Assembly (NCBI RefSeq): GCF_024713945.1
Contig: NC_134679.1
Span: forward strand, 2,299,001-2,363,000
Source of the DNA: Dermatophagoides farinae
Taxonomy: Eukaryota > Arthropoda > Arachnida > Sarcoptiformes > Pyroglyphidae
Direction of reading: 5' to 3'
DNA length: 64,000 bases
Below the pieces are notes generated by a model, which worked only from the letters and a program-made list of their open reading frames with translations, did no database searches and was not told where the DNA came from. Below are positions 36,028-63,832 of the stretch, one piece after another (the stretch's first letter is position 1; the number at the start of each line of letters is the position of its first letter). Made by a program: the position numbers and the translations under genes.

Positions 36028-38131
36028 CTTTTTTCTTTGTTTTTTATCTTATTAAAATTACTCGTATAAATTTCCAGCTAATAACAATAATGATGATGAT
36101 GATGATGATAATTCTGTTAGTTTATTTCCATCATCATCAGCATCATCGTTTAGTTTGTCGGATAAGAGTAAAAGTTGCTTGCAATGATCCTGTGAATCTT
36201 TCTTTCTTTCTTTTTTAACTCTTTGTTTTCCAGTAATATTCATTCATTTTTTTTTGTTTCATGTTTTCTATAAAGACAAAACTTTTTTTCCAGTGTTTTG
36301 TGTGTTCCACATGCTAATTTAAAAACTCGAAAAAAAACCGAATAAAAGAATTGAGAAAGAAAATTTATTACCAGAGAAAAAAAATAATAATAAACGTTTC
36401 GAAAACAAGCTAAACATTGAAAAACACCATTATTACCACTATAGTATAGTGATGACAGGCAAAACATTTTTTGGATCACTGTTAAATGGCTGATAGCTTT
36501 GTATTAGGAAAAAGGAAGAAAAGCTTTGCTGGTAAAAGAAATTGGCATCAACCAAAAAAAAAAAAAAAAAAATTTGCTGGACCAATGATTTTTTAATTTA
36601 TATCCATCCTGTTTGTGCACAAACACACACACACACACACACACTATATGGCGTCATCATACGTATTATCATGATGATGCCATCATCCTTTGCCATAATT
36701 TTTCAACACACACAACAATATTATCGCGAAATTTTTTTTTAAAAACTTTTACAATGATAATTAATTAATTTGAGCTTGTGTTTCATCCCAACGACTACCC
36801 TCTTCCGTGAAAATCGGATATTCCTCGTTTATATATGTTTGCCTGTTTGTTTGTTTGTATGTTTGTATGTTTGTTTTTTTAATAGAATCCACAAAGATAA
36901 TTCTTGCAAACAGATCTTTTTTTTGTTGTTCGAAAAAAACCAAATATCATAAACAAAACTGTGGTATTTGAAATAGAAAATTTTGTGAAATATTTTCCAT
37001 ATAATTCACATACACACACAGAGTAATTATCATTAAATACAAATAAAGTGAGAGTAATCTGAATTTATAATTGTTAATTATGATTTTTTTCGGTTTGTTT
37101 ATGTCTAGTATGTATGGTATTGTCATTCATTATGAGATTCACAATTCAATGAATCATATGATGATTACCGAATGAAAATCATTCAATAATTGACTAATAA
37201 AATGATGATGATGATGATAGAAATTGATTCAATCGTAAAGAATTTAATATTTTAAATGACAAAACAGCAAAAAATAATGGCATAACAATGATAAATCTTT
37301 ATATGGATGAGAATAAAATTATCTGGACATTTTTTCGTTTCGTTTCGTTTTGTTTTGTTTCACCAAATACATGTGATCAGAAAAGTTGAAAAACAATAAA
37401 TATAAATTAGCCTTATATAAATGAAAACCAAAGGTTCTGTCAGGCCAATGATGATGATGATGATGATGATGAACAACAGAAAAAAAACTATAATATTTAT
37501 AGAAACCAATAATAATAATAATCATAAAAAAATATTAATAGCTTCTACCGGGTTGTTCATTCATTGTTCGACCAGGGTTCATGTTCGTTTGATGGGTAAT
37601 TAACCCAATACCCGACAAATAAATAAAAAAAAATGTGGTTATCTCATTTTTGTTTTCTGTTTCTACCACATTATGTCATCTATATTCTTTTTTTTTGTCA
37701 TTTATTTTTTGCTTTTTATTTCGTTCGTAAATCGGAAAATGTCAATTTCCATTTTCCATCATTGCTTGTGTGTATTAATTTTTATCATTTTATCATCATC
37801 ATCATCATCATCATTATTATTAGCATTCGCTTTTGTTTGATTTCATTTCATGACATCAAATTATTAATTGATCTTTTTTTTGTATATTTTTTTTCCTTTT
37901 TCTAATATTTGACATTATGTTGTGGTGTTACTGTGACCACAATTTATAATCACCCAAACAAACAGTGGTTGAACAACGATTCGTAATTGAAGTATACGAT
38001 GAATTTGTTACCGCAGGCAATTCAGCATTATTACGTTGTCATATACCAGCATTTATGCGTGATTTACTTGATATTATTGGCTGGATAGAAGGTTCATCTA
38101 ATTATATTTTACCCGATACAACTGCCTTTGT

Positions 38132-38166
<35 letters not shown>

Positions 38167-41100
38167 TATCTTCATCATTGTCTTCGTCATCATCATCGTC
38201 CATAACACATCGTCAAAATTCAGGTATGTTATTCTTTCATTTGTTTAAAATGAATTCAAATTGATAAAACATTTTTTTTTTCATCATCCACATGGATGGA
38301 CAGATAAATATCGTATTCTTTATAATGGTGAACTTTTGATCAATAAAGTTGAACCAGCCGATGCATTAAAAAGTTTTCGCTGTCAAGTTAAACATCGATT
38401 GACGAATGAAAAATTTTTGAGCTCAAATTCTGGACGTTTGTTTGTTTCCGGTATGTATCAAGTGAATCAGCATCATGCATTGCCATTAATGTATCTATTT
38501 ATTTATCATTCCATTTTGAATGATTAATTGATAAATTCCATTTCTTTCTACTTTTTTGTTCCTGATAATTTATATGAACAAAAAAACAACATTTATCCAT
38601 AATCATCAATATTGAAATATGAAGAACTAATTTCTAGTCAACCACCAAGAATAATTGACACAAATCGTGTGATAATAACTGAAGAAGGTTCAACAGCTGA
38701 AATTGTTTGCCTAGCTCAAGGCTATCCAGAACCAACATACACGTGGTATAAAAATGCCGATCTAATATCCGATCGTATTATAACAGAATCATCATCATCA
38801 ACATTAAGTGGCCTAATGTCAAATAACTATCTAATACCTCGTTTTCGTATATTAACAAATTCAATATTGATCGAAAAAGTCAGCCAAAATGATGCCGGTC
38901 TTTATCGTTGTATTGTAAACAATAGTATTGGTTCAGAATTGGCTGAAACACAGTTGATTGTTCGATGTAAGTGATGTTTCTTGTCATATATTCGTTTATT
39001 TGTATTTATTCATTCCATATATGAATGTTTGGTGTGGTGTGTGCCGATTTTTCTTTTTCTTTTTCTTTTTTTTCATTCGTTTTCCAAGTGTTTCTATATA
39101 TATGTTATTTACATTATGAAGAATGATAAAATAAGAACGGAACAAAAAAAATTTTTTTTTTTCATATTCAGAATTATTATTATTATTTTTATTGTTTGAT
39201 CTACGACATGATTTTGACATTTTTGTGACAGACAAATTCTGTTAAAATTGTTATAAATGTAGCTAACGAGAATAGAGGAGAGAGAAAAAAAATTTTTTGT
39301 TTGCTATCCATTGTGTGTGTGTGTGTGTGTTATTCTGGTGGTATTTGGTATGTGCTTTGTGTATCAATAGGATTTCCTGTGTGTGTGTGTGTGTGTGTGT
39401 GTATGTTTGTCCGATATAATAATCGAAATATTTTCTCTTTTTTTTTGTTGCACCACATATACAAGCCATTGAAAGTAACATTAAAAATGTGTCACACATA
39501 GATTTCATTTAGGCACTACCAGAAAAAAATAGATCTTCAGTTCTGGTTCGTGTAATCTTTTCAAACCATTCATTCATTCATTCATTCATTCATTTATTCT
39601 ATCCATCCATCCATTTCCCATTCATTTTATTCAACATCATTGCAAAATATCACAAAAATTCTGATTTACATTATGCATTTGCGTTTTTTTCCCTCTTCTT
39701 TTTCTTCTTCTTCTTCTTCTTCAATATCCATTGCAATTTTTATTCATTCTTTCATACATACAACCAATGAACGAACCAACCAACCAACCAAAATTGGACA
39801 CACTGGTAAATTTGCCTATTCCTTATCTATGTGCGGAAAATTGGCCCTTTTTTTTGGTTTTATATGCAATTTTGCATTTGCTTATTTTTTTTCATTATTA
39901 TGTTGGCTATCAAATCCGATATGTTATTGCTCTTCATCTCTTTCTACCACTGGTGAATTTTTTTTTTTGCTCTTGAAAAGGCCAATTGAATTCACATATA
40001 TACAGTTTAATTTAGTATGATGACCATTACTAAGAAGCCAAATATATATAATGGACAACGACCAGAAAAAAAACTATTTTGAATCATTTGAAATCATTTT
40101 GATGTATTATATCTCATTGGTGGGTGGTGATGGTGGTGGTGGTGGTGGTGGTGATTGTTGTCGAGCCACTGGTATGACAGTATTCTATAATGTGTCTGTA
40201 TGTTTGTTCCGTTAAACATCAATCACATTCTTTTTTTTCACATGCCTAGTCATGAATCGACCTCAGACAACCATTTCTCTCATTCTATTCTGGTAGCCCA
40301 ATTCTATTACAATTTGATATTTATTCTGTTTAGAATTGTTGCAATTTGCTTTTTGCCAACCAACAATAAAAAAAATGTTATCTATTTTGGCATCTAACAC
40401 ACACACACACACACACACACCCATTTGAAGAGAGGGAGAGAGAGAGAGAAATCTCTTCTCCGAATTTTTTTTTTATTTTTCTGTTCACTTGATTGCCATC
40501 CCTAAGCATAAACAATGTTGACATTTTTTTTTTTTTTTTTTTTGGGGTTCACACTTACACAAACATAAAGCGTAAATTTCTTGTTGTTGTTGTTGTTGTT
40601 GCTGTCACTAGATAGTATAGTGGTGATGAGCTCAAGCAGCAAAATGAAAGAAGATGAAAAAAAAATCCAGAAAATCTACTCTTCAAATTCGAATGCAATT
40701 TTATCATTAATATCATATTAGAATTTTTTTTTTCATTTATTTTTGCTGCTTCTGCTTACACATTTTGGATAACACATTCTTGTATTTGAGTCCGAACCAA
40801 AAAAAAAAATCTGTCAATTTATTAATTGTTTTCCCAATTGACGACGACTACAACGACAATCATCGATCGATCGTTTGGATGGTAGGGACTGGATGGTACA
40901 CATAAATATACATAGCCAAACCGATCAAACCAATGACACTAAACAACAAACGATGATTATTGAATCGAATTTATTGTTGTTGATGGTCGAATAAATGAAT
41001 ACGGAATTTTCATTCATTCGTGCGTGTATGATATTCTATATGTTGTTCTAAACACATCATCATCATCATATACCAGACATGATTATATTTTTGGCGAGAT

Positions 41101-43883
41101 CTTATATATATTTTTGAGCCTTGTTGTTGTTGTTGTACGGAAACGATTTATTCATTCTTCATTGAATTCCAAACTTACACACATTCTATGTGTGTGTGTG
41201 TCACCAAAATTATTATTTTTCCATTTATAATTTTTTTTTTCTATTTGATGGATCACTTTTTTTTTCTTTGCTTCCCACCGTGGTTACCGGTCATCGTTAG
41301 TTTTTTTTGTGGAGGTTGTACATTGATGATGATGATGAAGCAATAGGAGATGGTTAGTTTCTCCTTAGTGTGATGTTTTTTTTTCAATCGAAATTCTTTC
41401 AGTTAATAATAATAAGGAGAATAGGGTCATCATCATCGTAGTTTTGTTTTTGCCATCCAAAAGGTTTTCTCTTCATATCATATATATTATATTCACGGTA
41501 GATTTACATTAGATTTTCATTTTCAAAAACAAAAAAAAAACATTTATGTCATCACAATGTTTGTGTCAATGTATACAACCTTAATTCTACTTTATCTTTG
41601 TTTTACTACATAAATATTGTTTCAATATTCAATATGATGATGATGATAAAAATCCTCTTGAAACATCATCCTCTCAGTTTGTTGAATTTTGTCCAGTTGA
41701 TTGATTTTTATACTATTCAATGTGTTTGTTGTTGCAAATAATAATAATAATAATAATGACATATTAATAGATCCTTTTGATCATTTATAAGTGGGGGGGG
41801 GGGGTCAAATGGTTTTTTTCCCATTTAAGATGCATTCTTTTTTTTATGGCTGAAAAGATATATTTTTCAAATATTACTGTCAACAATGTTGTCATTAATG
41901 ATGATTATGATGTATGATTAATTATGGTTCATATGATGATGATCCACATGATCTAAGTAAAAAAAAATGGAATGCAATCCACTTGTGTCCACTTGATTGT
42001 TAAGATGTGTGCATGTGTGTGGCAATGAGATTGCTCTTTTTTCTATTCGTTGTTGACCCCAAATTGGATTCAAAGAATTTCAAACTCAAATTCCAAAAAA
42101 TTTGATTCAATTAACAAAAAATTCTATCAATTCTTTTTGGCAAATAAATTCGAATAATGATAGTCTAATTATAACAAACAATAAACTTTCGTAATCAACA
42201 ACAATAACAACAACAACAAATTCGTGTTCGACTTTTGATCTAAAAACAACAACAACGATAATGAAAAAAAATAAAATTCATTATGGTACGATTTTTTTCC
42301 ACATTCTCTTTTGATGATTTGTGTGCAAGAAAAAAAACAAAAACAAAAACATAACATCAACATCAATGATACAATACACGATATTCTGGCCATTTAATCA
42401 AGCGTTTGCAAATTCAGCATTGTTTAGTGGTCAAAATGAAATGATGAAAAACATGAGAAAAAAAATTAATCGTCTTCACTAATTAAACTTGATTCATTCC
42501 ACAAAAATTGTTTGTTTGGCCATCGGGCATAGTTCAAATAATTGTCCAATACTTTAATTTTTAGAAAGAAAAAACCATAAGAAAAATAAATATCATTCAA
42601 GTCCCTGTTCTGGGACCCAACATTTCATAATGAATCATAGAGACAGAGAGTGAAATAAATGGATGAATGCCACTTTTTCATTTTCTTCAATCACATCTTC
42701 ACTGTCTCTAGATCTAGATCAGATATATATTTCATTTAAAATGTACTACTGTTTTTTTTTCTTATTTCTGTCCATCGTGTTTATATATTTATTTTAATAT
42801 ATATCAAAATTATATTAACAACGATAATCGAATAGAAAATGCAGAAGCAAGAAAAAAAAACATTATGTTTATCATTATCATAATTTTGATGATGATCATC
42901 ATCATCAATGATGGTCTGGCTGTCATTGCAGAAAATTGTCATTTGTCAGCTTTGTTAGTATTTTTGTTTTATTAATGAATCGATTTATGTCGTGCCATAT
43001 TTGTTTTCATCATTTATTTCATTTCTGTATGTGATTGTTTGTCTTGCGTATATATTTGTGGACAGATTTTATGTGCTGAAAACCAATTGACAATAACAAC
43101 ATCAACATCAACATCAACAATAATCACAATAATTTTTTGTTTTGTTCGTTTTGTTTTCTCAATCGTTTAGCACCATTGAATGTCCAGATTGGTCTTCCAA
43201 TAATTCGCATTGAATTGGGCAATAGTCTGACGCTTAATTGTACAGTCAGTGGTGGCCCAATTAAAGCTATCGAATGGCTACATAATGGTCGTCCCATATC
43301 GAATATGTTGGCCAGTAGTAATGGTGTTGGTCTATCATCATCATCATCATCATCATTGTCATCATCGGGCATTGGTACCATTGGATCATCATCATCATCA
43401 TCATCTGGTGGCAATGTTGGTGGTGGATTTCGTATACGATTAATTTCCCGTGAAGTTTTACACATTTCTAAAGTAACAAGAAATGATCGTGGGATGTATC
43501 AATGTGTTGCATTTAATGATTTTGATTCAGCACAAGCACAAGTTCAATTACAACTTGGTGGTAAGTTTTTTTTTATTACTTTTTCGATTCATTGATTGAT
43601 CGATATTTTTTTTGTGGGGAAAAAAATATATTTAAAATCTAACCTTTTTTATTTTGTCAATTTCTTTTCTAGATAATGCACCACAATTATTATCGGTATT
43701 TTCCGAACAAACGTTACAACCAGGTCAACCATTATCATTGAAGGTAAGTTTTTTTTTGTCCAATATTTCATTAGCTAATATATGAAAAAAAAACAAAATT
43801 TATAGATTGAACAAAAACTTGTACACACACACCGATGACAATCCCAAACGACAACATCTACAACGACAATGATGATAAACATC

Positions 43884-43925
<42 letters not shown>

Positions 43926-46900
43926 AAAAAATCTTGTTTAATCAAGCAATAGTAGTATCGAATTGAATGATTGAATGAATCAACATTGGCAATATTTTCG
44001 ATTTCTGCCGAAAAAAAGATCCATATCCTCAATAGTAATAATAATAAGGATGTAGATGAAATTAGATTGATTGGTTTTTTTCCTTTTTCTTCTCTTTCTT
44101 CGTTTTTTTCCTTTTTATCAGGTTTACTTTACAGATTCTGTGGAAGTCATTTTTTTCTAGTGTTTTTTTCTGGTTGTTTTAGCCTGTCATCAAATCAGAG
44201 AATCCGGGAAAAAAAGTATGAGAAAGTTGATCAATTGATTGATTGATTGATTATAGAGGTTGAACCAAAAAAAAAAAAAAAGAGAATACATTGAAAATAT
44301 TGTGTTTGTGAATCTAAGATTCTTGTTATTAATTCCAAATTCATTTATAAAACATATATTACAGAATGTTTTATATACTTATATTATGGTGTTTTCATCA
44401 TAGAATCTATAGAGAAAATGTGAATTTTAAGATGGTAAACCTTGTTATCATCAAAAAAAAAAAAATGAAATGAAATTTACTGGTAAAACATCACATGATA
44501 TTGATCACATCATTGCTTACGGGCTATTCTAGCGGAAAACTTTGCCAGTTATTATCACCTATTTTTTTGTCATCATTTTTCACAGAAAAAAAAATAATAA
44601 TTTCATTTTGAAATTCAATTTTGTAAACAAAATACCATTATATACCAGCAGAATCTCATTTTTCTTACATTATTTTGCTTCAAGCATTGTATGCAGTCAT
44701 ATTGTGAAGCAAAAAAAAATATGATTCTGATAATAATAATAATAATGACCTTTCCATTAAAATCGCGATTTTTTTCTCATTCGAATTGATATATCAGAAG
44801 CATCATGCGGCAAAATATCGATTTTATCATTTGTTGCTCATTATTCAATTCTGATATTTGCGGCAATATTAGCGTGAAAATTTTTCAATTTTATTATTTT
44901 GCTCTTTTTTTTCCTTGGATCGATTTTTTTTTGCCGCCACATACGATTGTTGATTGATTTTTGATGGCAATTTTTCTTCACTTCGTTTTTTTTTTGGTTT
45001 TGTGTTCACTATATATATGATGACCTTGTGCTGTTATTGTTCATCCATTGTATTTATGATCTTCGAAATGCAAATGATCATTTTTTTTCGGGTCGGATAT
45101 GTGAAAATGGATGTGAAAAAGAAAAGAAAAATTCATTTTTTTTTCATTCTAACCAAATTCCTCGGGCTTAAATCAAATGCGATCCGTCCGAATGAACCGA
45201 AACAACAACAACGGAAATGTTGCTATATGGATGGGAAAAAAAATATAGAAATTTTTTGTGCATCCAAAATATCCATGTGTCAGTCCCCTCAGTATCTGTG
45301 AATGATGATAATAATAAATCAGCCATTCAATTCGATCTGATGATTGATTTTTTTTCACATTTTTTTCTGCGTTCGATACATTGGATTTTTTTTTCTCATC
45401 TTTTGTCATTATTATTATCATCAATTTTTTTTCCTATTCTATTTTGCTTGTTTTTTTTCTCGGATTTGCATCCACTATTTTGACTGATGATATGATATGT
45501 ATGTATATGTAGAAAATCTAATGAAAATTATTACTCAGTCATCATCATCATCAAATGTTTATGTTTACTAGTGATCCATTTTCACTGACATTAATTTTTT
45601 TTTCTGCTGATTATGTCTATTTTTTCACTGTTCACTTGTCGTTGTTGTTGTTGTTGGCGATGGCGATAATTTTACATTAACACTGTATCATCATCATATA
45701 TAGTATATAGTAATTCTAATAATCTTTTTATTTTGCATTTTATCTATTGTTCTAAAATAGTGTATTGCATCAGGAAATCCGATACCACAAGTTTTATGGC
45801 ATGTCTATGACAAGTTACCGATACCCGATCATCTGGCTAGATATCGAATTGGTGATTATGTAACAAGAGATTCGTTATTGGTCAGCTATGTCAACATATC
45901 ATCCATACTACCCGAAGGTTTGTTTGTTTTCATGTCAACTGAATTTTGGAGTTATTTTTTTTTATTTATAAAATTTTCACATTGTTATTTCATCGTCTTT
46001 TTTTTTTCTTTCCTGTCAGATGGTGGCCTATATACTTGCCAAGCAATGAATGATGTTGCAACCATACAACATACAGCTCGTATTAATGTATATGGACGGC
46101 CAACTATAAGACGTATGCCAAACATGACCTCAGTTGCAGGTGAAAGTATTTCAATTACATGTCCAGTTGGTGGATATCCAATCGATTCGATTGTTTGGGA
46201 ACGAGGTTTGATCATGCTTGTTTTCTTAATAAGAAAATAATTTTCATTTTTTTTTTAATTTTAGATTCTGTACGTCTTCCATATAATCACCGACAAAAAG
46301 TGTTCACAAATGGCACCCTTACCGTTAATGAGCTTGAACGTGTTACCGATGAAGGAATTTATACATGTATAGCTCGTAATAAAGATGATATTCGTTCAAG
46401 TGCCAAAACTTCATTCTCACTCAAAGTATTTGGTATGTTGTTGTTTTATTTCATAATAATATTATTCATCTGTTTTTAATATTTATTCATATCAGATGAT
46501 AATTTTTCCAGTCAAATCGATGTATGTATGAGAGTGTGTGTGTAAGGAAAATTGTATTAAGTTTTGTTTCCATTTAATGTGTTTGCTATTTTTCTTCATC
46601 ATCAGTAACTTGTTTCATTTACCATGATAATCCAACCTTAATGAATGAATGAATGAATGGATATATAAAAATGAAATGAAAATGTTTGCCAAAAACTTGA
46701 AAACAAAAATTTAGAATATAAAAGCTTGATGACAAACATTTGTTTGTCTATCCCCTACAACCAAAAAAAAAAAAAAACGATGACGACGTGCTCAGAATTG
46801 TCGAATTTCAAATCATTCGATTCAAAGTTTGTTTATGAAAAACTTAAAATGAGAGAATCAAACTTTGAAATCACCAGCTTTTGTTGATGTTGTTGATTTT

Positions 46901-49900: not shown

Positions 49901-50421
49901 TGATTGAACCACTTTCATCTCCTCCTATTTTTCGTATATTTTTTTTCATTCTCATTGAAACCCAAATAGTTGTATACATCTTGTATATACATACTGATGT
50001 GAGCTATAAAGCAAGCAACCTAAAACAGATACAACAAGAAAAAAATAAAACCAATCAATTGATTATGACTTTGATGAAGCACTCAATTCACCAATTGTGT
50101 CATATAGAATTTTTTCTCCATTTTTTTTTTTGATGAAACTTACTAAACAAATATGTTGACTTGCTACTTCATTCACATTTTATTTTTTTTTTATTGATCA
50201 TATAATCATACAAGAATTTTTTTTTCTCATTGTTGATGAGTATTGTTCGAGTATCATATATAACAACAGAATCATCAAAGAAACTATCTACTAACTAGAT
50301 GTTTATATTGATGATGATTATGATGGTGATGGTGATGGTGGTGGCCCATATCATTTCTACATTGAGTGTCCAATTTCTAATTATCACTGAACATCACATA
50401 TGAACAAATTGAGTGTTTTTT

Positions 50422-50455
<34 letters not shown>

Positions 50456-52586: not shown

Positions 52587-52617
<31 letters not shown>

Positions 52618-55600: not shown

Positions 55601-58600
55601 TCATCCCATGCTCGATAGTCATAGTTGTAGTGAAAGAATGTTCTATTTGTTTTTTGTTTTCAGTACATTGAAAATAAAAAGAAAATTAATTAAGTGAAAA
55701 AACTTGTGTTTTAAGTGATTGCCATTTCCTTTATTTTTTTTTCTCTCTCTCCTTGTCTAACTTATTATTATTATAATCATTATCATCATTATTTCATTTT
55801 ATTTTCATTTGAAGTTTTGCCTGACTGGTTGCTGGCTGGGAAAAATTTTTTGGGTTCTAGAAAAAAAAATAACAGCAACAATGATAATGATGATGGAATA
55901 TTTTTGATTCTGGGAAAAAAAAATTAAACAAATTTCTCTGGAAACAAACTTTTTTTTCTATGGCTTGTTTTTCTGTTGTTTTGTTCATCATGTGTTTAAT
56001 ATATAAAATCTTTCAGGTGTTTTTTTTTATTTTCAATGAATAATAATAATAATGATGATGATGATGTAAATTACTGATAACTTTTTTTTCATATTTACAA
56101 AAATCCTAAAAAGTGAGTGAGAAAAATCACTGAATATATAGATTATTGTATTCAATGTTTTTCTATTATTAATTTTTATTATTCGTTGACTGTCTTTTTA
56201 TTCTCTTTTTCACGCACTGAAAGGAATTGATCGTGGAACAATGTGTGTGAGTGTGATATGATCTGGCCTCAAGGAACTAGAAATTGAATTGAATAGAAAT
56301 ATTTGTTGTACTACTACTAGCCTAGTATATGTATTGAATAGAGATAGATAGATGTCTAGTGTAGATAAAATAATGAGAATTTGAACGTTTTTTGTTTCTT
56401 TTCACACAACAACAAATATTCTGAATCTCGACTGGATAAAATAACATGCTTTTTACTTTACTTTCTTCTTTTTTTTTTCTTTGTTCATTATATTTTCATT
56501 TTCATACACACAGGATGTATACGTGAAACTAATAATTGATTATCATTTTTTTTCTCTTTTCTTTGTCGCTCTTTTTTTTGTTCTATTCATTACTTTTTTT
56601 TCGCGAATTTCCAATCATTGATTTGTTTTTTTTTCTCTGTAATATAGTTCGTCCTGTGATCGAACCATTCAAATTTCCACAGTCATTACATCAATCTCAG
56701 CGTTATAATTTACTTTGTACGGTCGTTAAAGGTGATCCACCGATCAAAGTATGTTAACTCTTTTTCTATTTTTATTCTCCGTTCTCATTTTTTCTTCTAA
56801 TATTGATCATTATCACCATTGATAATAATTGATTTTTTTTCATTTTTTTTTATTATTATCGTTGATTATGATGATAATAATAATTCAGGTTGAATGGTAT
56901 AAAGATGGAAAAAAATTAACCATTGGATCATTGCCTCATACGAATATTATACATGTTACTGATTATTCGGTTACATTGGCATTTGAATCTGTACAACCGG
57001 ATCATAGAGGTAAGCTGATGAGTGATATGATGATTGATAATATTATTTATTGACTTTTTTCTTTTAATATATATATATATAGGAAACTATACATGTGTTG
57101 CATCAAATGGTGCTGGAAGTAGTAGCCATAGTGCAACGATGGTCATACATGGTAGGTGAAAGTGTTATAAATTAACACAATTGTTTTATCCAAAGACAAT
57201 GGCCTTTCGATTATTGTTGAACCATCATTGTCATCAATAACAATCAAAAAATAGTTTGATTAAAAAACAAACATACAACGATAATTCTATTGGTTTGTCA
57301 TCATCATCTTGTGTATTATTATTGTTTCTGCTACTACTGCATTTGCTGATGATTATGGTGGTATTATGCTAATTAAATTAATTACATCCAACACGAATCT
57401 ATCTAAAAGATAAAATAGAACAAAACGAAAGACACGAAGAATGTAATCATTATAATTAGTGCTTACAATGGTGCTAAAATCAGAAAAATCTAAAAACACC
57501 ATTTTGCATCTCATTTCAACTCATATCTACTATTGTCAATGTCAAAGAATTTTTTTTTTTTTCGATTCTAGTTGAGGAATTCACAACTAAAATGAAACAT
57601 CCAACCGTACACATTCATATATGAATTGATTAGAATTTTAATTGTTTTTTTTTCATGGTTCCAATGAATATCTGATGAAGTGTTTTTTCTTCCATTCATT
57701 CATCAGTCTGAACATTCCGAATTCAAGAAAACAAGATTTTTTTTCTCATCACTTTTGGGACCGGCATTGAATGATTGTTTCTTGTCGACTGGTTTTCCTA
57801 TAGTCGATTTCTCCGATGAATTCTTGGATTGTAAACTGAATTTTTTTTTCTTTTTTTTTGCTTATGTCAGCAATAATATGATTATGAAGAGAGTTTGTCT
57901 TCAAGATAGTTTAGTTCTATTTCGTTGAAAAACTGAGTGAAAAAAAAGAGCGAATTATCTACATCCACATTCTTTTTATATTCTCTTTATTCGTATTGGT
58001 TTCTTTTTTTCTCTGTTATTATTTAATTTGTATCAATTACGAACAGAAACGAATATTATATTTTGAGGGGATTCTTTATAATTTGTCGAGTGGCAAAATT
58101 AGTTGTATTCTATTTCATTTGGTGCAAAATGATAAATTTCTCACCATGTTTGTTTCGATTATTTTTATTTTGCCCATTTGTTTATAGGATTGTTCTGGTT
58201 GTTGTTGTTGTTTTTGTTTTCTCTCTTTTTGCGAATCAACAAACAATTGGCACAAGCAAATTGTTTCCAAATGTTATAATTGATTGACTTGTTTTCATCA
58301 ATTTTATTTCGACTTTTTTTTTCTCTCTCTCTCTTTCATTCTTTTACATCAAAATTGCAATCTCATCGCCTACAATTGTCTTACAATAATATCCAAAATG
58401 AAAACAATTTCTCTCCAGAGACTATGGATATTTCTTTGGACCTTGTTATAGTTCCCTGTTTGGAATCCCTATAGGATCTATTGTGTGTTTTGGAAAAAAT
58501 CAACGTTTAGACCCATAGAATGTCGGAAAAAAATTTTTCTTGTTCAACATTCTTTCACATGAAACAGAATAGAACAAGTAAAGCGCCCAAATGAAAGCCA

Positions 58601-61600
58601 GTTAGTTTTTCTCTTTTTTTTATCGAATATTATTATATGCAAATGAACCGAATCCAAAATGATAATATTATGGTGAGAATAAAAAAAAACCGACGACCGT
58701 CCTTGTCTTTTTTTTCTCTCTTCTACCATAATCATCATCGTTGTTTCTTTCATTTTAAGAAAGTAATTCAACCAAAAAAAAATCTAACTCCGACAACAAA
58801 AATAGAGACGATATTTAGCTCATTTTCAACACCATATATCTATTTATACAGAAAAAAAAATGAAAAACCAAACCGATAAATGAATAACAAAATCAAAGTG
58901 AAAGCCATTCATCATTAATGACGTTAAATGCCCTACATTCTTGTCATATATTGTTTTGTTTATGTTTCTATGTCTATGGGTGTTATCGGTTTCCTATTTG
59001 GTAGTGGTCCAACAATATTCGAAGTTAAAGATGTTTGGCATTTGGATGATAACAGATGAATCGAATTTGAAAATTATTTTTTATTTATTCATTTTTTTTC
59101 TTTCTCTCTCTCTTTTTTTTCTGTTCATCATTGATATCAGTTCCTCCACGTTGGCGTATAGAACCGACGGATGTGACTGTTGTTAAAGGACGTAATGCTA
59201 TTATTGATTGTGATACGGATGCATATCCGGAACCGGTTATAACATGGTCACGTGCTGAAGGTATTTTTTTTCCATTTTTATTATTTTGTACAGAAAATTT
59301 TCATTCTTTTTTTTCTATCATTCATAAGGCCTAGATATTAACAATGAATTACCATCGAATTTTAAGCCGATCAATTCAAATGGACATTATCGATCATATG
59401 AAAATGGATCATTGGTCATACATAATTCACATAAATCCGATACGGGTTATTATATGTGTGCTGCATCCAATGGTATTGGTCCTGGAATCAGTAAAGTTAT
59501 TAAGATTACTGTCAATGGTAAGCCACTGTCATTGATTTAGTGGAATAAAATTATCAAAATATTACTTGTGTAATAACAACAAGTACCATATATAGTGATC
59601 ACATTCATATTAAATCGAAATCAATGAATTTTGTCTGGATCAACCAGGAAAAATTCTTTTTTTTCTACTCATTGGTCATTGCTATTTTTTTCATGCTTTG
59701 TTATCTATTTATTCTCATTCTTCTTTATATTACATTAGTTGCGGCAACATTTGAGACAAAATTCCGTACCGAAACCGTTCATCGGGGATTAGAGGCACGA
59801 ATCAAATGTAGTGCAAATGGTGATAAGTAAGTTTGGATTGTATTTGGATTTTTTTTCGCCTTTTTGTAAAATCGTTTTTCATTGCCTAGTATTGTAATAG
59901 TAGCTAGTGAATAAGCTTAAGATTTTGTTATCCTTTTTTTTCTGTTTTGATTATCGCTTATAAAAATTATTATTATTATTATTATAAATAGGCCGGTTAC
60001 GATTTCTTGGTTCAAAGATAAAGCACCATTGATGACCACTGAAGATGGCCGATATGATCTAATTGAAACAATTATGAATGAAGGTATTAAATCTGAACTA
60101 TTAATTCGTAATGCTGATCGTCGTGATGGTGGCCTTTACACGTGTTTGGCATCCAATTCATTTGGTCATGATGATACAAATATACAGCTTATTGTACAGG
60201 AACCACCAGATCCACCGGGTGATATTAAAATAATTGAAAGAGATGGCCGTTCTATACGTATTCAATGGTCAACACCATATAGTGGTAATAGCCCATTAAC
60301 TCATTATATTGTTCAACATAAACCTGAAAGTGGTATGTATCAAATGATGTTTGATTTAATTTTACAATCTTGTACATTTGCAATGGATACAAACAACAGT
60401 GTTTATATAGCAAAAAAAAAAAAAAAGAAATGTAGAGACAAGCAGTGAAAAAAATCGACAAACACATATGGATCCTTTGGGTCTCCTTAAAGGCAGAATT
60501 GTTCTGGTTTTTATGTTTCTATTCAATGAGAAACTTAATTAAAAATAATATATCACATCACAACCCCGTTACATTAAATTTCGAATAGTGTTTAAACCAA
60601 ATGTTTTTCGTTCATTGTTCATTATTATTCTACAATTCAATATTTAGCTCGAAAATAGTTTCAAAATATAGAGAGAGAAAAAAAAATGGTTCATTTCATT
60701 CGAAACAACCATCAACATACAGTAACCACATTTACTTGAAATCAAAGATGTGAAAAGCAACAAAAAAACCGAAAAAGACGAATAGTTTAAATAAAAAAAA
60801 GAGAAAAAAAACACGATACACGCACACACACAGAAACACAGACACGCAACAAACGACCAACGAATCAGTTGATCATTTTTATGATTTTCACGATTGAAAG
60901 AATCTAAAATCATTATCACTATTCGTTTGGGTTGGTCGTCGTCGTCGTATCTCATCATCATTCTTATTATGTTTATCGTATTTTTTGTGTGATACTGAGA
61001 TTCTTGGCTATCCTTGAAATACATTATTATATTTAATTTTCTCGTTTTTGGTCTCTCACTCTCTCTCTATTGGAGCATCATCAACAACAACAACAAAAAG
61101 TGAGATCAAAACACAGAAAAAAAGCCTGAAGAACCGAACCGAGAAAGAAACGAAGAAAAAAAAATGAAATTCGTATCTAAACGAATAAATCGAGTCGATT
61201 GTGGAATAAAGATAGAGAGATCGAGAGATAGAAAAAAAAAGAACAACAAACCACTTAACAGCAATTTTTTTTCAAGACTTTTAAATTCGTTTTTTTCTGC
61301 TGTTGTTGTTGTTGTTGTTATTGTATTCTGAAAAAAATGGTCGACTGCTTGAAGCTTTTATTTTTTTTATTTTTGGTACACATTGACCACCAACGCCCAC
61401 ACTAGAATAGACACTCTTCAACACTTGAAAGTTGTCTAATCATTTTCTTTCGTGATTTTTTTTCTATCAAGTTTGAGTTCACGGCAACTCGATTATCATT
61501 ATCATTTTTTTTTGGTCATCATTTAATTTGATCAAATCAAATATCTACTATTTTTTCTTATCGTGGATCCCACCCCCGTTTTTAGATTGAATTTATATTT

Positions 61601-63832
61601 CTGTCAAAATTATTAAATTGAAATTTTATCAATTTTTTTTGTTTGTGTAAATTTTGACGCCTCATAGATTTTGACTTTTTTTTGGTTTTTGGTTGTTGAC
61701 TTTCAACTTTTGAGGTTTTTTTTATGATCACACTGATCGGTTGAGATCAAAGTAATTATCAAATTTTTTTTTGTTCACAATCATTTGATGGATAATTATA
61801 GACAAGAATTTTTCGTTTTGTTTTGTTTTTTTTTGAACAAATACAGAACTGAAAAAGTATCATTTTCGCGGATTCTTTTTTTTCTTTGATCATCATCATC
61901 GGACTTTTTTGTTTTTTTTTTCTTTATAGATTCAACACACACACACACGAGCATCAATTTGACGGCTTCGCAAAAATTGCTTTGAAACATTATTTGGTGA
62001 AGAAATAAAAAAAAAATTGACAGGATATATCGACAGACAAATCGACGAAAACATATACGTACACAGACATACAAATAGTCATCGATTATAGTCATTTCAA
62101 AATATTCTCTATTTCACAAGTGGCAAATTGCCATTAGAATTCATTGGAAAAAAAGGTTGAAAGAAAATGGTAGAAAATAATAATAATATTGCCATTCAAT
62201 GATGATGATGATGATAGAAATGGATCTCTCGAGCTTCTTCACCGTTTTCTTGGCTCGTTTCGTTTTTTTATCTATTTTATTTGCTTGTGTTGAAGTAGAG
62301 AAAAAAAGTATCTTATTCCAATAAATCATTCGATTCACTAGTAACTGGTTGAATGATTCGATGATGACTTTGCATCGTCCAAAGATCAAACGTAGTTTAA
62401 AACAGGAATAGTTTGATACACACACAAAAGACGAACTGTAAACTCTGGAAGAAACAAGATATGTAACAGCAAGGTTGAATGTTGTTGTTGTTGTTTGACG
62501 TTTCAGTTTTTTCTTATTTTTGCAAAAAGGATCCAAAATGATTATAGCAACATTATGATATTGTTGATGATGATGGTGATTTTCAATGTTTATGATGTCC
62601 ATTTTATTTTTTCTTTTATTTTTTTTTCACGAACCCATTTCACTCCAATTAATCATTTGATTTTTTTTCCAATTTCTTTTTCCGTTCCGTTTGAATTGGT
62701 TTTAAGTTTGTTGAAATGAAAATTTTTTTTCTTTTTTTCTACAATCTACATTCACACACACACACACAGACAGAAATATACAGAACACGACAAATCGAAA
62801 CGGAAACTTTTTCGGAACAATTTCAAATTGCTATTAATCTACAAATAATGTTTTTTTTTGTTGTTGTCTACTTCAGAGAAATTATCATCACATTACTATA
62901 ATTTAACATTGGTTGCATCAGAAAATTTTGTTACATTGAATGGCCTTCAACCAGTGACCACATATCAAGTTCGTATTATTGCCATCAATGATCTTGGTCA
63001 AAGTGAACCAAGTGATGTAATGTTTGTACAAACGGATGAAGAAACACCTGGTGGTCCACCATTACATCTTAAAGCTGTGGCATTAACATCTACATCGATC
63101 AAAGTATCGTGGAAAACACCACGTAAAGAGCTTCAATTTGGTTTTATTCGTGGCTATTATATTGGCTATCGAATAATTCAATCGGCCTCATCGTTGGATT
63201 TATCAACATCATCATCATCATCGTCAGGATCTAATCCAACTAGTCAACAAAGTGATTTTATCTACAAAACCCTTGAAGTAAAAGGAAAAGATAATGTTGA
63301 AGAATGTATAATTAGCGAGCTTAAACGAGCTTCACGTTATGAAATTGTTGTACAGGCTTTTAATTCAAAAGGTGCCGGTCCTTCTTCGGAACCGGTACAT
63401 GTTAAAACATTGGAATTTGGTAAGATTTGTCATATACTCTAAATATAATAACTAAATGGTCAAATTTCTATTTATAGATCCACCAACGGCACCAACGCTA
63501 CAAGTGACTGAAGTAACATTCAATTTCATACGTTTAACATGGTCAATGTTGTCCGATCAAATTATATCAGGCATGTCAAATCTCAAATTTTTTATGGATT
63601 TTTGTTTATCTAATAGCCATCAATGTTTATATCATTTTCTTGATCATAGGATATATTCTACATTATAAACGTGAATCAAGCGATTGGCGTGAATTAAAAT
63701 TATCCAATATCAATACATTTACACATGAAAATCTTCGTTGTGGTACCAGATATCAATATTATCTTGTAGGCTTTAATTCAGCTGGAAAAGGCGATCCAAG
63801 CCAAGTGGTTTCGGCACGTACCGATGGAACTT
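6474..63832 (+). CDS. Dscam: Dscam-family cell adhesion receptor (Ig1-Ig9, FNIII1, FNIII2, FNIII5-like), 22 coding exons, 3' end outside window
   Basis: This encodes a cell-surface receptor of the Down syndrome cell adhesion molecule family, whose members act in neurite self-recognition, wiring and, in arthropods, immunity. Joining 22 exons gives one open frame of about 1404 codons. Approximate residues are: N-terminal extension and hydrophobic segment 1-114, Ig1 118-213, Ig2 216-350, Ig3 352-463, Ig4 465-593, Ig5 595-696, Ig6 697-787, Ig7 789-885, Ig8 886-987, Ig9 989-1080, FNIII1 1084-1185, FNIII2 1188-1310, FNIII5-like 1313-1404. Every Ig has its paired cysteines, for example YCSVNG/YRCSAEN in Ig1 and LLCTVVKG/YTCVASN in Ig7. 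Stretches such as GGYPIDSIVWERD with RQKVF-NGTL in Ig6 are near-identical to fly Dscam as I recall it. Fly-type FNIII3, FNIII4 and Ig10 are absent. Almost all domain-boundary introns are phase 1. The membrane span and tail lie beyond 64000. Family assignment is firm; which paralogue is not. Confidence 0.94.
7804..7824. repeat. (GACT)n tetranucleotide repeat
   Basis: About five tandem GACT units lie in intron 1. A related run of TCAG units occurs near 13391-13411 in the same intron. Confidence 0.9.
10968..11020. repeat. (CT)n microsatellite, 53 bp
   Basis: Uninterrupted CT dinucleotides continue into imperfect CT/T sequence to about 11030. On the transcribed strand it is complementary to the (GA)n tract at 18711-18789. 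Confidence 0.95.
15251..15308 (+). CDS. Dscam: Dscam-like exon 2: start of Ig1
   Basis: The acceptor is TTATTTAG (AG 15249-15250) and the donor is AA|GTAAGT at 15309. One base from exon 1 plus AT makes Asp, and the frame reads DHIGPYFIREPPQQVIFSN. The pattern 'GP.F..EPP....FSN' is the start of Dscam Ig1. It leaves phase 2. Confidence 0.88.
15426..15520 (+). CDS. Dscam: Dscam-like exon 3: Ig1 first cysteine and tryptophan
   Basis: The acceptor TTTTAAG ends at 15425, after a 117-bp intron, and the donor is ACTG|GTAAGA. It encodes NTGAVIYCSVNGNPMPKVYW and then ETKND to DVTG. It carries the first Ig1 cysteine and the core Trp, close to fly 'STGA..EC...GNP.P...W'. Confidence 0.9.
15521..17639 (+). 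other. Dscam: Intron 3 (2119 bp)
   Basis: No exon is supported. It holds an (AC)n run at 16045-16085, poly-A and poly-T runs, CAA repeats near 16395 and (AC)n near 17179. Confidence 0.75.
16045..16085. repeat. (AC)n microsatellite, 41 bp
   Basis: Uninterrupted AC dinucleotides lie inside intron 3. Confidence 0.95.
17640..17789 (+). CDS. Dscam: Dscam-like exon 4: Ig1 C-terminal half
   Basis: The acceptor AAATTAAAG ends at 17639 and the donor is GCCG|GTAAGT. It encodes GLRHVRHDNALVFQQFS, then STKDYRPD, and YRCSAENSVG with the second Ig1 cysteine, ending RYVQVRA. Exons 2 to 4 total 303 nt and are flanked by phase-1 introns, so together they form a frame-neutral Ig1 block. Confidence 0.92.
18711..18789. 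repeat. (GA)n microsatellite, 79 bp
   Basis: This is the longest pure dinucleotide tract in the window, in intron 4. In RNA it is complementary to the (CT)n tract in intron 1. Confidence 0.95.
25946..26001. repeat. (GAT)n microsatellite, 56 bp
   Basis: Perfect GAT triplets lie in intron 4. The same triplet, as ATC/TCA, is the commonest repeat in the window and also occurs inside coding exons. Confidence 0.95.
28124..28149. repeat. Inverted repeat: 9-bp perfect arms, 8-nt loop
   Basis: TTTGCTAAC at 28124-28132 and GTTAGCAAA at 28141-28149 are exact reverse complements around ATCTAGTA. It lies in intron 4 and its function is unknown. Confidence 0.7.
34280..34310. repeat. (ATC)n microsatellite
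   Basis: About ten perfect ATC triplets lie in intron 4. Confidence 0.9.
35556..35635. mobile_element. Possible Tc1/mariner (pogo-like) terminal-repeat remnant with a 23-bp direct repeat
   Basis: A 23-bp sequence (TATATAATACACACCCGTAT + TAG) occurs exactly at 35556-35578 and again at 35613-35635. Between them is a GC-rich 34-bp segment. On the minus strand, starting next to a TA dinucleotide, the segment reads CAGTAATACCCCGCTTACG (35612 back to 35594), which resembles the CAGT..TACC.CG start of pogo/Tigger-type terminal repeats. No transposase and no partner terminal repeat is seen nearby. The assignment is inferred from memory of the family. Confidence 0.3.
35995..36027. repeat. (GTT)n microsatellite
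   Basis: About eleven GTT triplets lie in intron 4. Confidence 0.9.
37966..38223 (+). CDS. Dscam: Dscam-like exon 5: Ig2 N-terminal half with poly-Ser insertion
   Basis: The acceptor AAACAG ends at 37965 and the donor is TTCAG|GTATGT. It encodes VVEQRFVIEVYDEFVTAGNS, ALLRCHIPAF with the first Ig2 cysteine, and IIGWIEG with the core Trp. This matches the fly exon 4 region ('GNSA.LKC.IPSF'). It then runs into 23 codons of Ser with two Leu (38133-38201), made of TCA-type triplets, and ends ITHRQNS. Only one version of this exon is seen. Confidence 0.92.
38304..38450 (+). CDS. Dscam: Dscam-like exon 6: Ig2 C-terminal half
   Basis: The acceptor GGACAG ends at 38303, after an 80-bp intron, and the donor is TCCG|GTATGT. 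It encodes DKYRILYNGELLINKVEP, then FRCQVKHRLT with the second Ig2 cysteine, and GRLFVS, the same pattern as fly 'YQCRTKHRLT....GRLVI'. Confidence 0.92.
38625..38966 (+). CDS. Dscam: Dscam-like exon 7: complete Ig3
   Basis: The acceptor AG at 38623-38624 is chosen because it keeps frame and gives FVSELISSQPPRIIDTN, which aligns without gaps to the fly Ig2-Ig3 junction. The stronger-looking TTTCTAG at 38637 would shift the frame into an early stop. An alternative pairing (donor 38455 with acceptor 38637) is also in frame but uses a weak donor. It encodes EIVCLAQGYPEPTYTWYKN and YRCIVNNSIGSE. The donor is CGAT|GTAAGT. Length is 342 nt with both flanking introns phase 1, so it can be skipped without a frameshift. 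Confidence 0.85.
40119..40153. repeat. (GGT)n-rich repeat
   Basis: GGT/GAT triplets form a G-rich patch in intron 7. The sense strand has many GG doublets, so a weak G-quadruplex in the pre-mRNA is possible. Confidence 0.85.
41793..41804. repeat. Poly-G run (12 G)
   Basis: Twelve consecutive G stand out in a window where runs of A or T are the rule. Confidence 0.9.
43171..43560 (+). CDS. Dscam: Dscam-like exon 8: complete Ig4 with Ser/Gly-rich insertion
   Basis: The acceptor CGTTTAG ends at 43170 and the donor is GGTG|GTAAGT. It encodes PLNVQIGLPIIRIELGNS, LTLNCTVSGGPIKAIEWLHN and YQCVAFNDFDSAQAQVQL, matching fly 'APLS..I.PP' and 'GNPIK...W'. A Ser/Gly low-complexity insertion (about 43312-43428) sits between the core Trp and the second cysteine. 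Length is 390 nt and both flanks are phase 1. Confidence 0.92.
43673..43743 (+). CDS. Dscam: Dscam-like exon 9: start of Ig5
   Basis: The acceptor TTTCTAG ends at 43672 and the donor is AAG|GTAAGT, phase 0. It encodes DNAPQLLSVFSEQTLQPGQP and then LSLK. The intron before it is 112 bp. Confidence 0.88.
43744..45760 (+). other. Dscam: Intron 9 (2017 bp), inside Ig5
   Basis: No exon is supported. It includes an (AG)n run at 43887-43920 and many A/T runs. Confidence 0.75.
43887..43920. repeat. (AG)n microsatellite
   Basis: About 17 AG dinucleotides lie in intron 9. In RNA they are complementary to the (CT)n tract at 50425-50453 in intron 12. Confidence 0.95.
45761..45917 (+). CDS. Dscam: Dscam-like exon 10: middle of Ig5
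   Basis: The acceptor AAAATAG ends at 45760 and the donor is GAAG|GTTTGT. It encodes CIASGNPIPQVLWHVYDKLP with the first Ig5 cysteine and Trp, then RYRIGDYVTRDSLLVSYVNI, near-parallel to fly 'DRYQVGQYVT...VSYLNI'. Confidence 0.92.
46020..46205 (+). CDS. Dscam: Dscam-like exon 11: end of Ig5 and first half of Ig6
   Basis: The acceptor TCCTGTCAG ends at 46019 and the donor is CGAG|GTTTGA. It encodes DGGLYTCQAMNDVATIQHTA, NVYGRP and then SITCPVGGYPIDSIVWER. The last stretch is one of the best conserved in Dscam and anchors the family call. Confidence 0.94.
46265..46432 (+). CDS. Dscam: Dscam-like exon 12: second half of Ig6
   Basis: The acceptor AATTTTAG ends at 46264, after a 59-bp intron, and the donor is TTTG|GTATGT. 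It encodes DSVRLPYNHRQKVFTNGTL and YTCIARNKDD with the second Ig6 cysteine, ending FSLKVF. The RQKVF.NGTL motif matches fly Ig6. Confidence 0.94.
50425..50453. repeat. (CT)n microsatellite
   Basis: A pure CT tract lies in intron 12, complementary in RNA to the (AG)n tract of intron 9. Confidence 0.95.
53760..53854. repeat. Two-copy direct duplication, 44-bp identical units, period 51
   Basis: Positions 53760-53803 and 53811-53854 are identical. The unit starts TCTTGAAAAAG and ends ATGGAGCACAG, and contains ATT and GTT triplets. The copies are separated by seven bases. This looks like a recent local duplication inside intron 12. Confidence 0.9.
56648..56748 (+). CDS. Dscam: Dscam-like exon 13: Ig7 first part
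   Basis: The acceptor AATATAG ends at 56647 and the donor is AAA|GTATGT, phase 0. It encodes VRPVIEPFKFPQS and NLLCTVVKGDPPIK with the first Ig7 cysteine, aligned with fly Ig7 'PPQIAPFDFG' and 'CTV.KGD.PI'. Only a single copy is seen, whereas fly has dozens of alternatives for this domain. Confidence 0.92.
56889..57009 (+). CDS. Dscam: Dscam-like exon 14: Ig7 middle
   Basis: The acceptor AATTCAG ends at 56888 and the donor is AGAG|GTAAGC. It encodes VEWYKDGKKLTIGSLP and ends VTLAFESVQPDHR. It carries the core Trp. Ig7 is spread over three exons here, whereas fly encodes it in one. Confidence 0.9.
57083..57151 (+). CDS. Dscam: Dscam-like exon 15: Ig7 end
   Basis: The acceptor TATATAG ends at 57082 and the donor is CATG|GTAGGT. 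It encodes GNYTCVASNGAGSSSHSA and TMVIH, containing the second Ig7 cysteine. Confidence 0.9.
57152..59140 (+). other. Dscam: Intron 15 (1989 bp), between Ig7 and Ig8
   Basis: No exon is supported. It contains somewhat less repetitive sequence than other introns, including a chance open frame at 57680-57928 of unknown kin. Confidence 0.7.
59141..59260 (+). CDS. Dscam: Dscam-like exon 16: Ig8 first half
   Basis: The acceptor TGATATCAG ends at 59140 and the donor is GAAG|GTATTT. It encodes VPPRWRIEPTDVTVVKGRNA, IIDCDTDAYPEPVITWSRAE. VPPRW..EPTD is the fly Ig8 start. Confidence 0.94.
59329..59517 (+). CDS. Dscam: Dscam-like exon 17: Ig8 second half
   Basis: The acceptor TTCATAAG ends at 59328, after a 68-bp intron, and the donor is AATG|GTAAGC. 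It encodes YENGSLVIHNSHKSDTGYYM and then CAASNGIGPGISKVIKITVN. It matches fly 'EG.YLCEA.NGIG.GLS'. Confidence 0.93.
59739..59826 (+). CDS. Dscam: Dscam-like exon 18: Ig9 first part
   Basis: The acceptor ACATTAG ends at 59738 and the donor is GATAA|GTAAGT, phase 2. It encodes VAATFETKFRTETVHRGLEA and RIKCSANGDK. Confidence 0.92.
59992..60332 (+). CDS. Dscam: Dscam-like exon 19: rest of Ig9 and first half of FNIII1
   Basis: The acceptor AAATAG ends at 59991 and the donor is AGTG|GTATGT. It encodes KPVTISWFKDKAPL, YTCLASNSFGHDDTNIQLIV, then QEPPDPPGDIKIIERDGRSI and the FNIII Trp in IRIQWSTPYSGNSPLTHYIV. One exon spans the Ig-FNIII border with no intron between the domains. Confidence 0.93.
60333..62876 (+). 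other. Dscam: Intron 19 (2544 bp), inside FNIII1
   Basis: No exon is supported. It holds poly-A near 60411, (AC)n near 60822, GTT repeats near 61301, (AC)n near 61935 and 62753, and A/T runs. Long minus-strand open frames here are repeat-driven. Confidence 0.75.
62877..63419 (+). CDS. Dscam: Dscam-like exon 20: end of FNIII1 and all of FNIII2
   Basis: The acceptor CTACTTCAG ends at 62876 and the donor is TTTG|GTAAGA. It encodes the end of FNIII1 (LNGLQPVTTYQVRIIAINDL), the linker DEETPGGPP, and FNIII2 with VSWKTP, GFIRGYYIGYRI and YEIVVQAFNSKGAGPSSEP, matching fly 'GEILGYYVGYK' and 'VVIQAFNKIGAGPLSE'. A Ser-rich insertion lies at about 63181-63240. Confidence 0.94.
63478..63570 (+). CDS. Dscam: Dscam-like exon 21: first half of FNIII5-like domain
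   Basis: The acceptor TTTATAG ends at 63477, after a 58-bp intron. It encodes DPPTAPTLQVTEVTFNFIRL, TWSMLSDQIIS. The only frame-keeping end is CAG|GCATGT, a GC donor at 63571. The GT at 63575 would break the frame into a stop. Confidence 0.85.
63650..63832 (+). CDS. Dscam: Dscam-like exon 22: second half of FNIII5-like domain
   Basis: The acceptor GATCATAG ends at 63649 and the donor is ACTT|GTAAGT, phase 1. It encodes GYILHYKRESSDWRE, LRCGTRYQYYLVGFNSAGKG and VVSARTDGT. The patterns GY.LHYK....W.E and L.CG.RYQ....GFN..G.G are those of fly Dscam FNIII5, not FNIII3. Confidence 0.92.

What the first reader, a model, noticed from the sequence alone, without database searches (positions are those of the whole stretch)
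62877..63832. Dscam with full Ig1-Ig9 but FNIII3, FNIII4 and Ig10 missing: FNIII2 joined directly to an FNIII5-like domain
Exon 20 ends in a clear FNIII2 domain. Only 58 bp later exons 21-22 encode an FNIII whose features (GY.LHYK....W, L.CG.RYQ....GFN..G.G) are those of fly FNIII5. No room exists for FNIII3, FNIII4 or Ig10. The reported shortened Dscams (sDscam) of chelicerates have the order Ig7-Ig8-Ig9-FNIII1-FNIII2-FNIII5. This gene therefore looks like an sDscam C-terminal half that still carries Ig1 to Ig6, a plausible ancestral or intermediate form. The comparison is from memory of those families.
Basis: partly seen in the sequence, partly recalled or inferred. Interest (0 to 1): 0.78.

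Follow-up and report, generated by a model that had tools for sequence, protein, structure and literature searches.

The report
Probable mite mDscam, a known class
This gene, probably from a mite, encodes a nerve-cell recognition protein (Dscam) that lacks three of the usual stalk domains; that shortened form is already described across chelicerates, so this is a new member of a known class rather than a missing link.

Summary
FNIII2 (exon 62877-63419) is joined across a 58 bp intron to an FNIII5 domain (exons 63478-63570 and 63650-63832); scans found no FNIII3, FNIII4 or Ig10 coding sequence. But the window ends too early. Downstream in the same genome come FNIII6 (67240-67320 and 67574-67780; Pfam DSCAM C-terminal Fn3, 83 bits), a membrane span (about 67.9 kb) and a tail. 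The order is Ig1-Ig9, FNIII1-2-5-6, TM. That is the published mDscam (Cao 2018: lacks Ig10 and FNIII3-4), and Yue 2016 reports such genes in all chelicerates it investigated, a spider mite among its species, and already proposes the "intermediate" idea. The gene is not an sDscam C-terminal half: sDscams lack FNIII6, and on a tree three mite sDscams group with a scorpion sDscam (98/99) without it. The assembly holds 10 FNIII6-bearing Dscam loci (two are near-identical copies of each other) and four sDscam-type loci. I found no classical Dscam with FNIII3-4-Ig10: a possible lineage loss, and the only part that may be new. Verdict: real, ordinary; new member of a known kind.

The parts
15415..15513 (+). 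Ig1, first part (rest of Ig1 not located)
   Evidence: Ig HMM E 0.0012; aligns to fly Dscam1 3dmk residues 54-87, weak alone
37998..38410 (+). Ig2 (two exon pieces)
   Evidence: weak HMM pieces, colinear with 3dmk Ig2
38651..38962 (+). Ig3
   Evidence: HMM 3.9e-30 (this domain was one of the HMM's seeds), colinear with 3dmk
43182..43553 (+). Ig4
   Evidence: HMM 4.2e-29 (this domain was one of the HMM's seeds), colinear with 3dmk
45761..46090 (+). Ig5 pieces (first part not located)
46112..46392 (+). Ig6 pieces
56650..57150 (+). Ig7 (three exon pieces, ends approximate)
   Evidence: read by eye; two weak HMM pieces; colinear with 3dmk
59161..59486 (+). Ig8 (two pieces)
59750..60196 (+). Ig9 (two pieces)
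   Evidence: HMM 2.5e-11 for the second piece; within the stretch aligned to sDscam Ig1-3, 7y6o
60203..60332 (+). FNIII1, first part (end of exon 19)
   Evidence: donor GTATGT
62877..63419 (+). exon 20: rest of FNIII1 and all of FNIII2
   Evidence: FNIII2 58.4 bits to fly FN2
63420..63477 (+). 58 bp intron, the FNIII2-FNIII5 junction
   Evidence: GT-AG
63478..63570 (+). exon 21: FNIII5, first part
   Evidence: GC donor
63650..63832 (+). exon 22: FNIII5, second part. The gene goes on OUTSIDE the window: exon 23 at L009:4240-4320 and exon 24 at L009:4574-4780 (FNIII6), exon 25 from L009:4859 (membrane span and start of tail; 3' end not modelled). L009 coordinate = window-extended coordinate minus 63000.
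   Evidence: FNIII6: PF25059 83.3 bits on the spliced domain, 65.5 bits on the genomic exon; membrane span: hydrophobic stretch followed by basic residues, read directly

Best explanation
The gene encodes an mDscam: a single-pass cell-surface receptor with Ig1-Ig9, FNIII1, FNIII2, FNIII5, FNIII6, a membrane span and a cytoplasmic tail, in a small-genome chelicerate (probably an acariform mite). Shown from sequence: the domain order and the FNIII2-FNIII5 junction. Inferred: Ig1-Ig8 mediate Dscam1-like homophilic trans binding, the shortened FNIII stalk holds it at the membrane, and the tail signals (contact recognition or repulsion between neurites, possibly also haemocyte recognition). The missing block is most likely a fixed, old family deletion and not alternative splicing: a sister gene (C4:3829k) has FNIII1-FNIII2-FNIII5 in one uninterrupted open frame.
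For: Ig1-Ig8 colinear with fly Dscam1 3dmk (E 3.6e-142) and Ig7-9 with sDscam 7y6o. Last FNIII is the DSCAM C-terminal domain PF25059, 83.3 bits against a cut-off of 39. All 37 of the 37 mite FNIII domains typed score best against the expected fly domain FN1, FN2, FN5 or FN6 (fly letters recalled; the margin is small for the C3:515k X domain, 11.7 against 9.1). Tree of 43 rows: fly FN5 falls among the X domains (95/92 for 8 of 10 X rows plus fly FN5 and FN4), fly FN6 joins Y (100/100), fly FN3 lies in the FN2 group (98/93). The AU test rejects X+flyFN3 (p 0.0104) and Y+flyFN4 (p 0.0007); X+flyFN5 is not rejected (p 0.297). The window's three FNIII align in order with scorpion sDscam FNIII1-3, PDB 7y8s. 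PF25059 over the genome finds FNIII6 in 10 Dscam-type loci; nine of these were read in translation and show FNIII2, then an FNIII5-like domain, before it (by eye for C9:267k and C3:6772k, whose X domain was not scored); the tenth (C3:3391k) is a 98.6% copy of C3:3308k. mDscam is defined as lacking Ig10 and FNIII3-4 (PMC5775551).
Against: No transcript: splicing is read from GT/GC-AG signals and an open frame only. One intron needs a GC donor. X+flyFN4 as one clade is not rejected either (p 0.103; fly FN4 is the longest branch of the tree and falls inside the X group, and its direct score to win_X is 13.3 against 55.1 bits for FN5). Most of Ig1, part of Ig5 and the signal peptide were not located. 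No function was tested.
Confidence: 0.93

Rival explanations
1. A true intermediate: an sDscam C-terminal half (FNIII1-2-5, no FNIII6) that still carries Ig1-Ig6.
For: FNIII2-FNIII5 junction shared with sDscam.
Against: FNIII6 (PF25059, 83.3 bits) and then the TM follow; three mite sDscams and scorpion 7y8s form one group without it (98/99). Of 11 named contact residues of the scorpion sDscam cis dimer and kink it keeps 4, but the mite sDscams do not keep all of them either, so this last point is weak.
Confidence: 0.03
2. The exon 21-22 domain is FNIII3 (or FNIII4), so the gene lost Ig10 and FNIII5 rather than FNIII3-4 and Ig10.
For: Genomic order alone allows it; X+flyFN4 is not rejected (p 0.103).
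Against: win_X scores 55.1 bits to fly FN5, 15.0 to FN3 and 13.3 to FN4; X+flyFN3 rejected, p 0.0104; aligns with the third FNIII of sDscam 7y8s, which is FNIII5 by elimination from the published definition (sDscams lack FNIII3-4 and 6).
Confidence: 0.03
3. FNIII3, FNIII4 and Ig10 exons exist in an intron and are spliced in alternatively.
For: Two long introns flank the region (60333-62876 and 63833-67239), and the scans used see short half-domain exons poorly.
Against: HMM and tblastn scans of window plus 9 kb found no such exon; paralog C4:3829k has FN1-FN2-FN5 in one 341-codon open frame.
Confidence: 0.02

Closest known systems
mDscam (middle Dscam) of Chelicerata, Cao et al. 2018, PMC5775551; genes of this form already in Yue et al. 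2016, PMC4835542
   Same: Ig1-9, FNIII1-2, two further FNIII, TM, tail; lacks FNIII3-4 and Ig10; present as many paralogs. Yue 2016 says such genes are present in all Chelicerata investigated and names Tetranychus urticae, a spider mite, among its species.
   Different: No difference in domain order was found. The six species of Cao 2018 include no acariform mite; I found no classical Dscam in this assembly.
sDscam alpha/beta/gamma, Yue et al. 2016, PMC4835542
   Same: FNIII2 directly followed by FNIII5; Ig7-9 homologous to sDscam Ig1-3.
   Different: sDscams lack Ig1-6 and FNIII6, and alpha and beta have 5' cassette arrays; this gene keeps Ig1-6 and FNIII6. No second Ig7 was found in it, by a scan that barely sees Ig7 itself.
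Classical Dscam (fly Dscam1)
   Same: Ig1-Ig9 in order, FNIII1, 2, 5, 6 and TM.
   Different: Lacks FNIII3, FNIII4 and Ig10.

Membership tests
mDscam | Lacks FNIII3-4 and Ig10 | tested here: met
   (genomic sequence, no transcript)
mDscam | Keeps FNIII5 and FNIII6 before the membrane span | tested here: met
mDscam | Keeps Ig1-Ig9 | tested here: met
   (colinear with 3dmk and 7y6o); of Ig1 only one piece was located
mDscam | Groups with other species' mDscams on a tree of Ig7 to the end | not tested
   I had no chelicerate mDscam sequence from another species
sDscam | Lacks FNIII6 | tested here: not met
   FNIII6 present, PF25059 83.3 bits
sDscam | Lacks Ig1-Ig6 | tested here: not met
sDscam | Groups with sDscams on a FNIII1-2-5 tree | tested here: not met
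   sDscam group of 4 rows, 98/99, excludes it
classical Dscam | Ig10 between FNIII4 and FNIII5 | tested here: not met

The most novel reading that the evidence does not exclude
This lineage has lost the classical Dscam altogether: every Dscam in the genome is of mDscam or sDscam type, so the shortened stalk carries all Dscam functions. PF25059 over its cut-off is found only in the ten m-type loci and in giant, titin-like reading frames; recalled fly FN1-2, FN3-4-Ig10 and FN5-6 queries show no further Dscam locus. Not excluded: a gap in the assembly, whose completeness is not given.
Probability: 0.7. Interest if true: 0.4.

Novelty: new member of a known kind. Interest (0 to 1): 0.2.

Why it matters
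It adds one gene, and a compact set of mDscam-type and sDscam-type paralogs in one assembly, to a class already reported across Chelicerata. If classical Dscam is really absent, it would show that an animal can do without a Dscam that has FNIII3-4-Ig10. The finding itself does not change the published scheme of Dscam shortening; it agrees with it.

Tried and rejected
Looked for a classical Dscam in the own genome. C10:2531-2535k is a LAR-type phosphatase, C1:2974k another receptor phosphatase, C6:3640k a sidekick-like gene (13 fn3 matches in a row after its Ig domains), and C5:2294k and C4:3327k other Ig proteins; these names are my reading of domain order and motifs. Not every fn3-bearing locus was fetched and read. 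A PDB search to verify the recalled fly FNIII3-6 letters showed no classical Dscam chain over that part (60 of 306 matches shown). Structure prediction was not used, because spliced proteins do not come letter for letter from the DNA. The residue test used FNIII1-2-5 of four mDscam-type genes (window, L014, L021, L025), three mite sDscams and fly. The window gene keeps L358, P395, L492 and D578 of 11 residues; the mite sDscams keep N357 in two of three, and Y420 and Q485 in none, so the test is weak. The tree has 11 rows; L024, L026 and L027 are not in it, and L017 and L019 are there with FNIII1-2 only.

Low-complexity inserts were cut by hand from L017 FN1, L025 X and Y, L026 X and L027 X, and the L014 X junction was joined by eye.

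Literature searches: Dscam/Chelicerata/shortened Dscam (20 of 29 listed), mDscam (4), LDscam (1), Dscam with Acariformes (2), with Tetranychus urticae or FNIII (20 of 50 listed), with Dermatophagoides, Sarcoptes or Psoroptes (20 of 274 listed), and with mite, chelicerate and 'loss of' from 2019 (2). In these listings and the passages I read I saw no report that a mite lacks classical Dscam; open-licence PMC papers only, no supplements (the Dscam trees of PMC6275457 and PMC4835542 are in supplements).

Full report
What is there. The window is C3:2299001-2363000 of a 62.4 Mb, 22-contig genome. The gene runs past the window end, so I read 9 kb more (L009 is joined to the window in the scripts, and the 1000 shared bases are identical). 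The exons around the finding are 62877-63419 (rest of FNIII1 and all of FNIII2), 63478-63570 and 63650-63832 (domain X), with a 58 bp intron between FNIII2 and X. Beyond the window come 67240-67320 and 67574-67780 (domain Y), then 67859 onward with a membrane span; the joined exons read open in one frame.

What X and Y are. Pfam calls X an fn3 domain (3.6e-11) and Y the DSCAM/DSCAML C-terminal Fn3 domain PF25059 (83.3 bits, cut-off 39). Against recalled fly Dscam1 domains X scores FN5 55.1, FN1 21.5, FN3 15.0, FN4 13.3; Y scores FN6 51.9, next best FN5 16.6; all 37 of 37 mite domains typed match the expected fly domain best. On a 43-row tree Y+flyFN6 is 100/100, flyFN5 lies among the X domains, flyFN3 lies with FN2 (98/93), and flyFN4 also falls inside the X group, on the longest branch of the tree (2.23). 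AU tests: X+flyFN3 rejected (p 0.0104), X+flyFN4 not rejected (0.103), X+flyFN5 not rejected (0.297), Y+flyFN4 rejected (0.0007). Independent of recalled letters, the window's FNIII1-FNIII2-X align in order with scorpion sDscam FNIII1-3, PDB 7y8s; that third domain is FNIII5 of classical Dscam, since sDscams lack FNIII3-4 and 6 (PMC4835542). So the order is FNIII1-2-5-6-TM.

The Ig part. Exon pieces joined by hand are colinear with fly Dscam1 Ig1-8 (3dmk, E 3.6e-142) and, for Ig7-9, with sDscam Ig1-3 (7y6o). Ig1 is only partly located (15415-15513).

Is anything hidden? HMM scans and tblastn with recalled fly FN3, FN4 and Ig10 over window plus 9 kb found no FNIII3, FNIII4 or Ig10; besides the domains listed there were two weak Ig matches at 8164 and 17717 (E 0.63 and 0.25). 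The scans are weak for half-domain exons: the first half of FNIII5 was found at E 0.55 only and the first half of FNIII6 not at all. A paralog on C4 has FNIII1-FNIII2-FNIII5 in one 341-codon open frame, so the arrangement does not depend on splicing there.

The family in this genome. PF25059 over the genome gives 84 matches at E 0.01 or better. Ten Dscam-type loci pass the cut-off: window gene; C4:3829k; C9:267k; C3:6772k; C3:3308k; C3:3391k; C3:3167k; C8:2547k; C8:3134k; and C7:4783k, the last only with its neighbours in the frame. Six further rows over the cut-off lie in giant, titin-like frames on C9 and C7. Four loci have three FNIII and no FNIII6 and are sDscam-type: C1:3974k, C1:8208k and C3:515k, in which a membrane span was read after the third FNIII, and C1:8137k, a 97.6% copy of C1:8208k. 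Only the window gene was checked for Ig1-Ig6; the others are m-type by their FNIII order. No locus with FNIII3-4-Ig10 appeared.

Comparison. [quoted passage not shown]). PMC4835542 (passages) says that Dscams lacking FNIII3-4 and Ig10 are present in all Chelicerata investigated, names Tetranychus urticae among its species, and proposes loss of FNIII3-4 and Ig10 first, then of the membrane-proximal FNIII, then of Ig1-6. The finding is therefore a member of a known class and fits a published scheme. Nothing singles it out as the form next to sDscam: on an 11-row FNIII1-2-5 tree three mite sDscams and scorpion 7y8s group at 98/99 without it, and the order among the mDscams is unresolved.

How it probably works (inference). 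The authors of PMC5775551 find it conceivable that mDscams form the Dscam1-type Ig1-4 horseshoe and interact by a similar mechanism. In sDscam the three FNIII form a cis dimer with a kink at the FNIII2-FNIII3 joint (PMC10154414, passages). The matching joint exists here, but N357, Y420 and Q485 read G, L and E, so that exact cis dimer is doubtful; the mite sDscams do not keep all of these residues either. Other papers with mites give Dscam numbers or trees without domain detail in the passages I saw (PMC6275457, PMC6902594, PMC4833078); PMC3364881 was also read in passages only.

Organism. Nonclassical Dscams are reported as restricted to Chelicerata (PMC5775551); with a 62 Mb genome an acariform mite is likely.

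Noticed in passing
C1:8137k (+) and C1:8208k (-) (L016, L015); C3:3307k (+) and C3:3391k (-) (L021, L022); C3:6732k and C3:6771k (L020, L019): Three pairs of near-identical Dscam loci: 97.6% over 3.4 kb, 98.6% over 4.3 kb and 98.7% over 2.5 kb; the first two pairs are inverted. Recent segmental duplications, or haplotype copies in the assembly.
   Followed up: partly
   Followed up: no
C1:3962903, C3:3932569, C2:5250084: An Ig exon with the same score (58.4 bits) on three contigs, one of them at the start of an sDscam array; perhaps a dispersed copy.
   Followed up: no
L009/L010, window-extended about 70.2-70.8 kb and 73.6-74.6 kb: Two small secreted-looking coiled-coil reading frames downstream, the second with a Thr/Pro-rich repeat tail; they recall mite group 5/21 allergens, from memory only.
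   Followed up: no
window 1255-3048: A 598-codon open frame with a GENGAGKTT motif, an ABC transporter A-like piece by my reading.
   Followed up: no
window 63571-63649: The intron inside FNIII5 uses a GC-AG donor.
   Followed up: partly
window 15514-37997 and 46393-56649: Very long gaps between located pieces: 22 kb from Ig1 to Ig2 (the rest of Ig1 must lie there) and 10 kb before Ig7; no duplicate Ig7 exon was seen, by a weak scan.
   Followed up: partly
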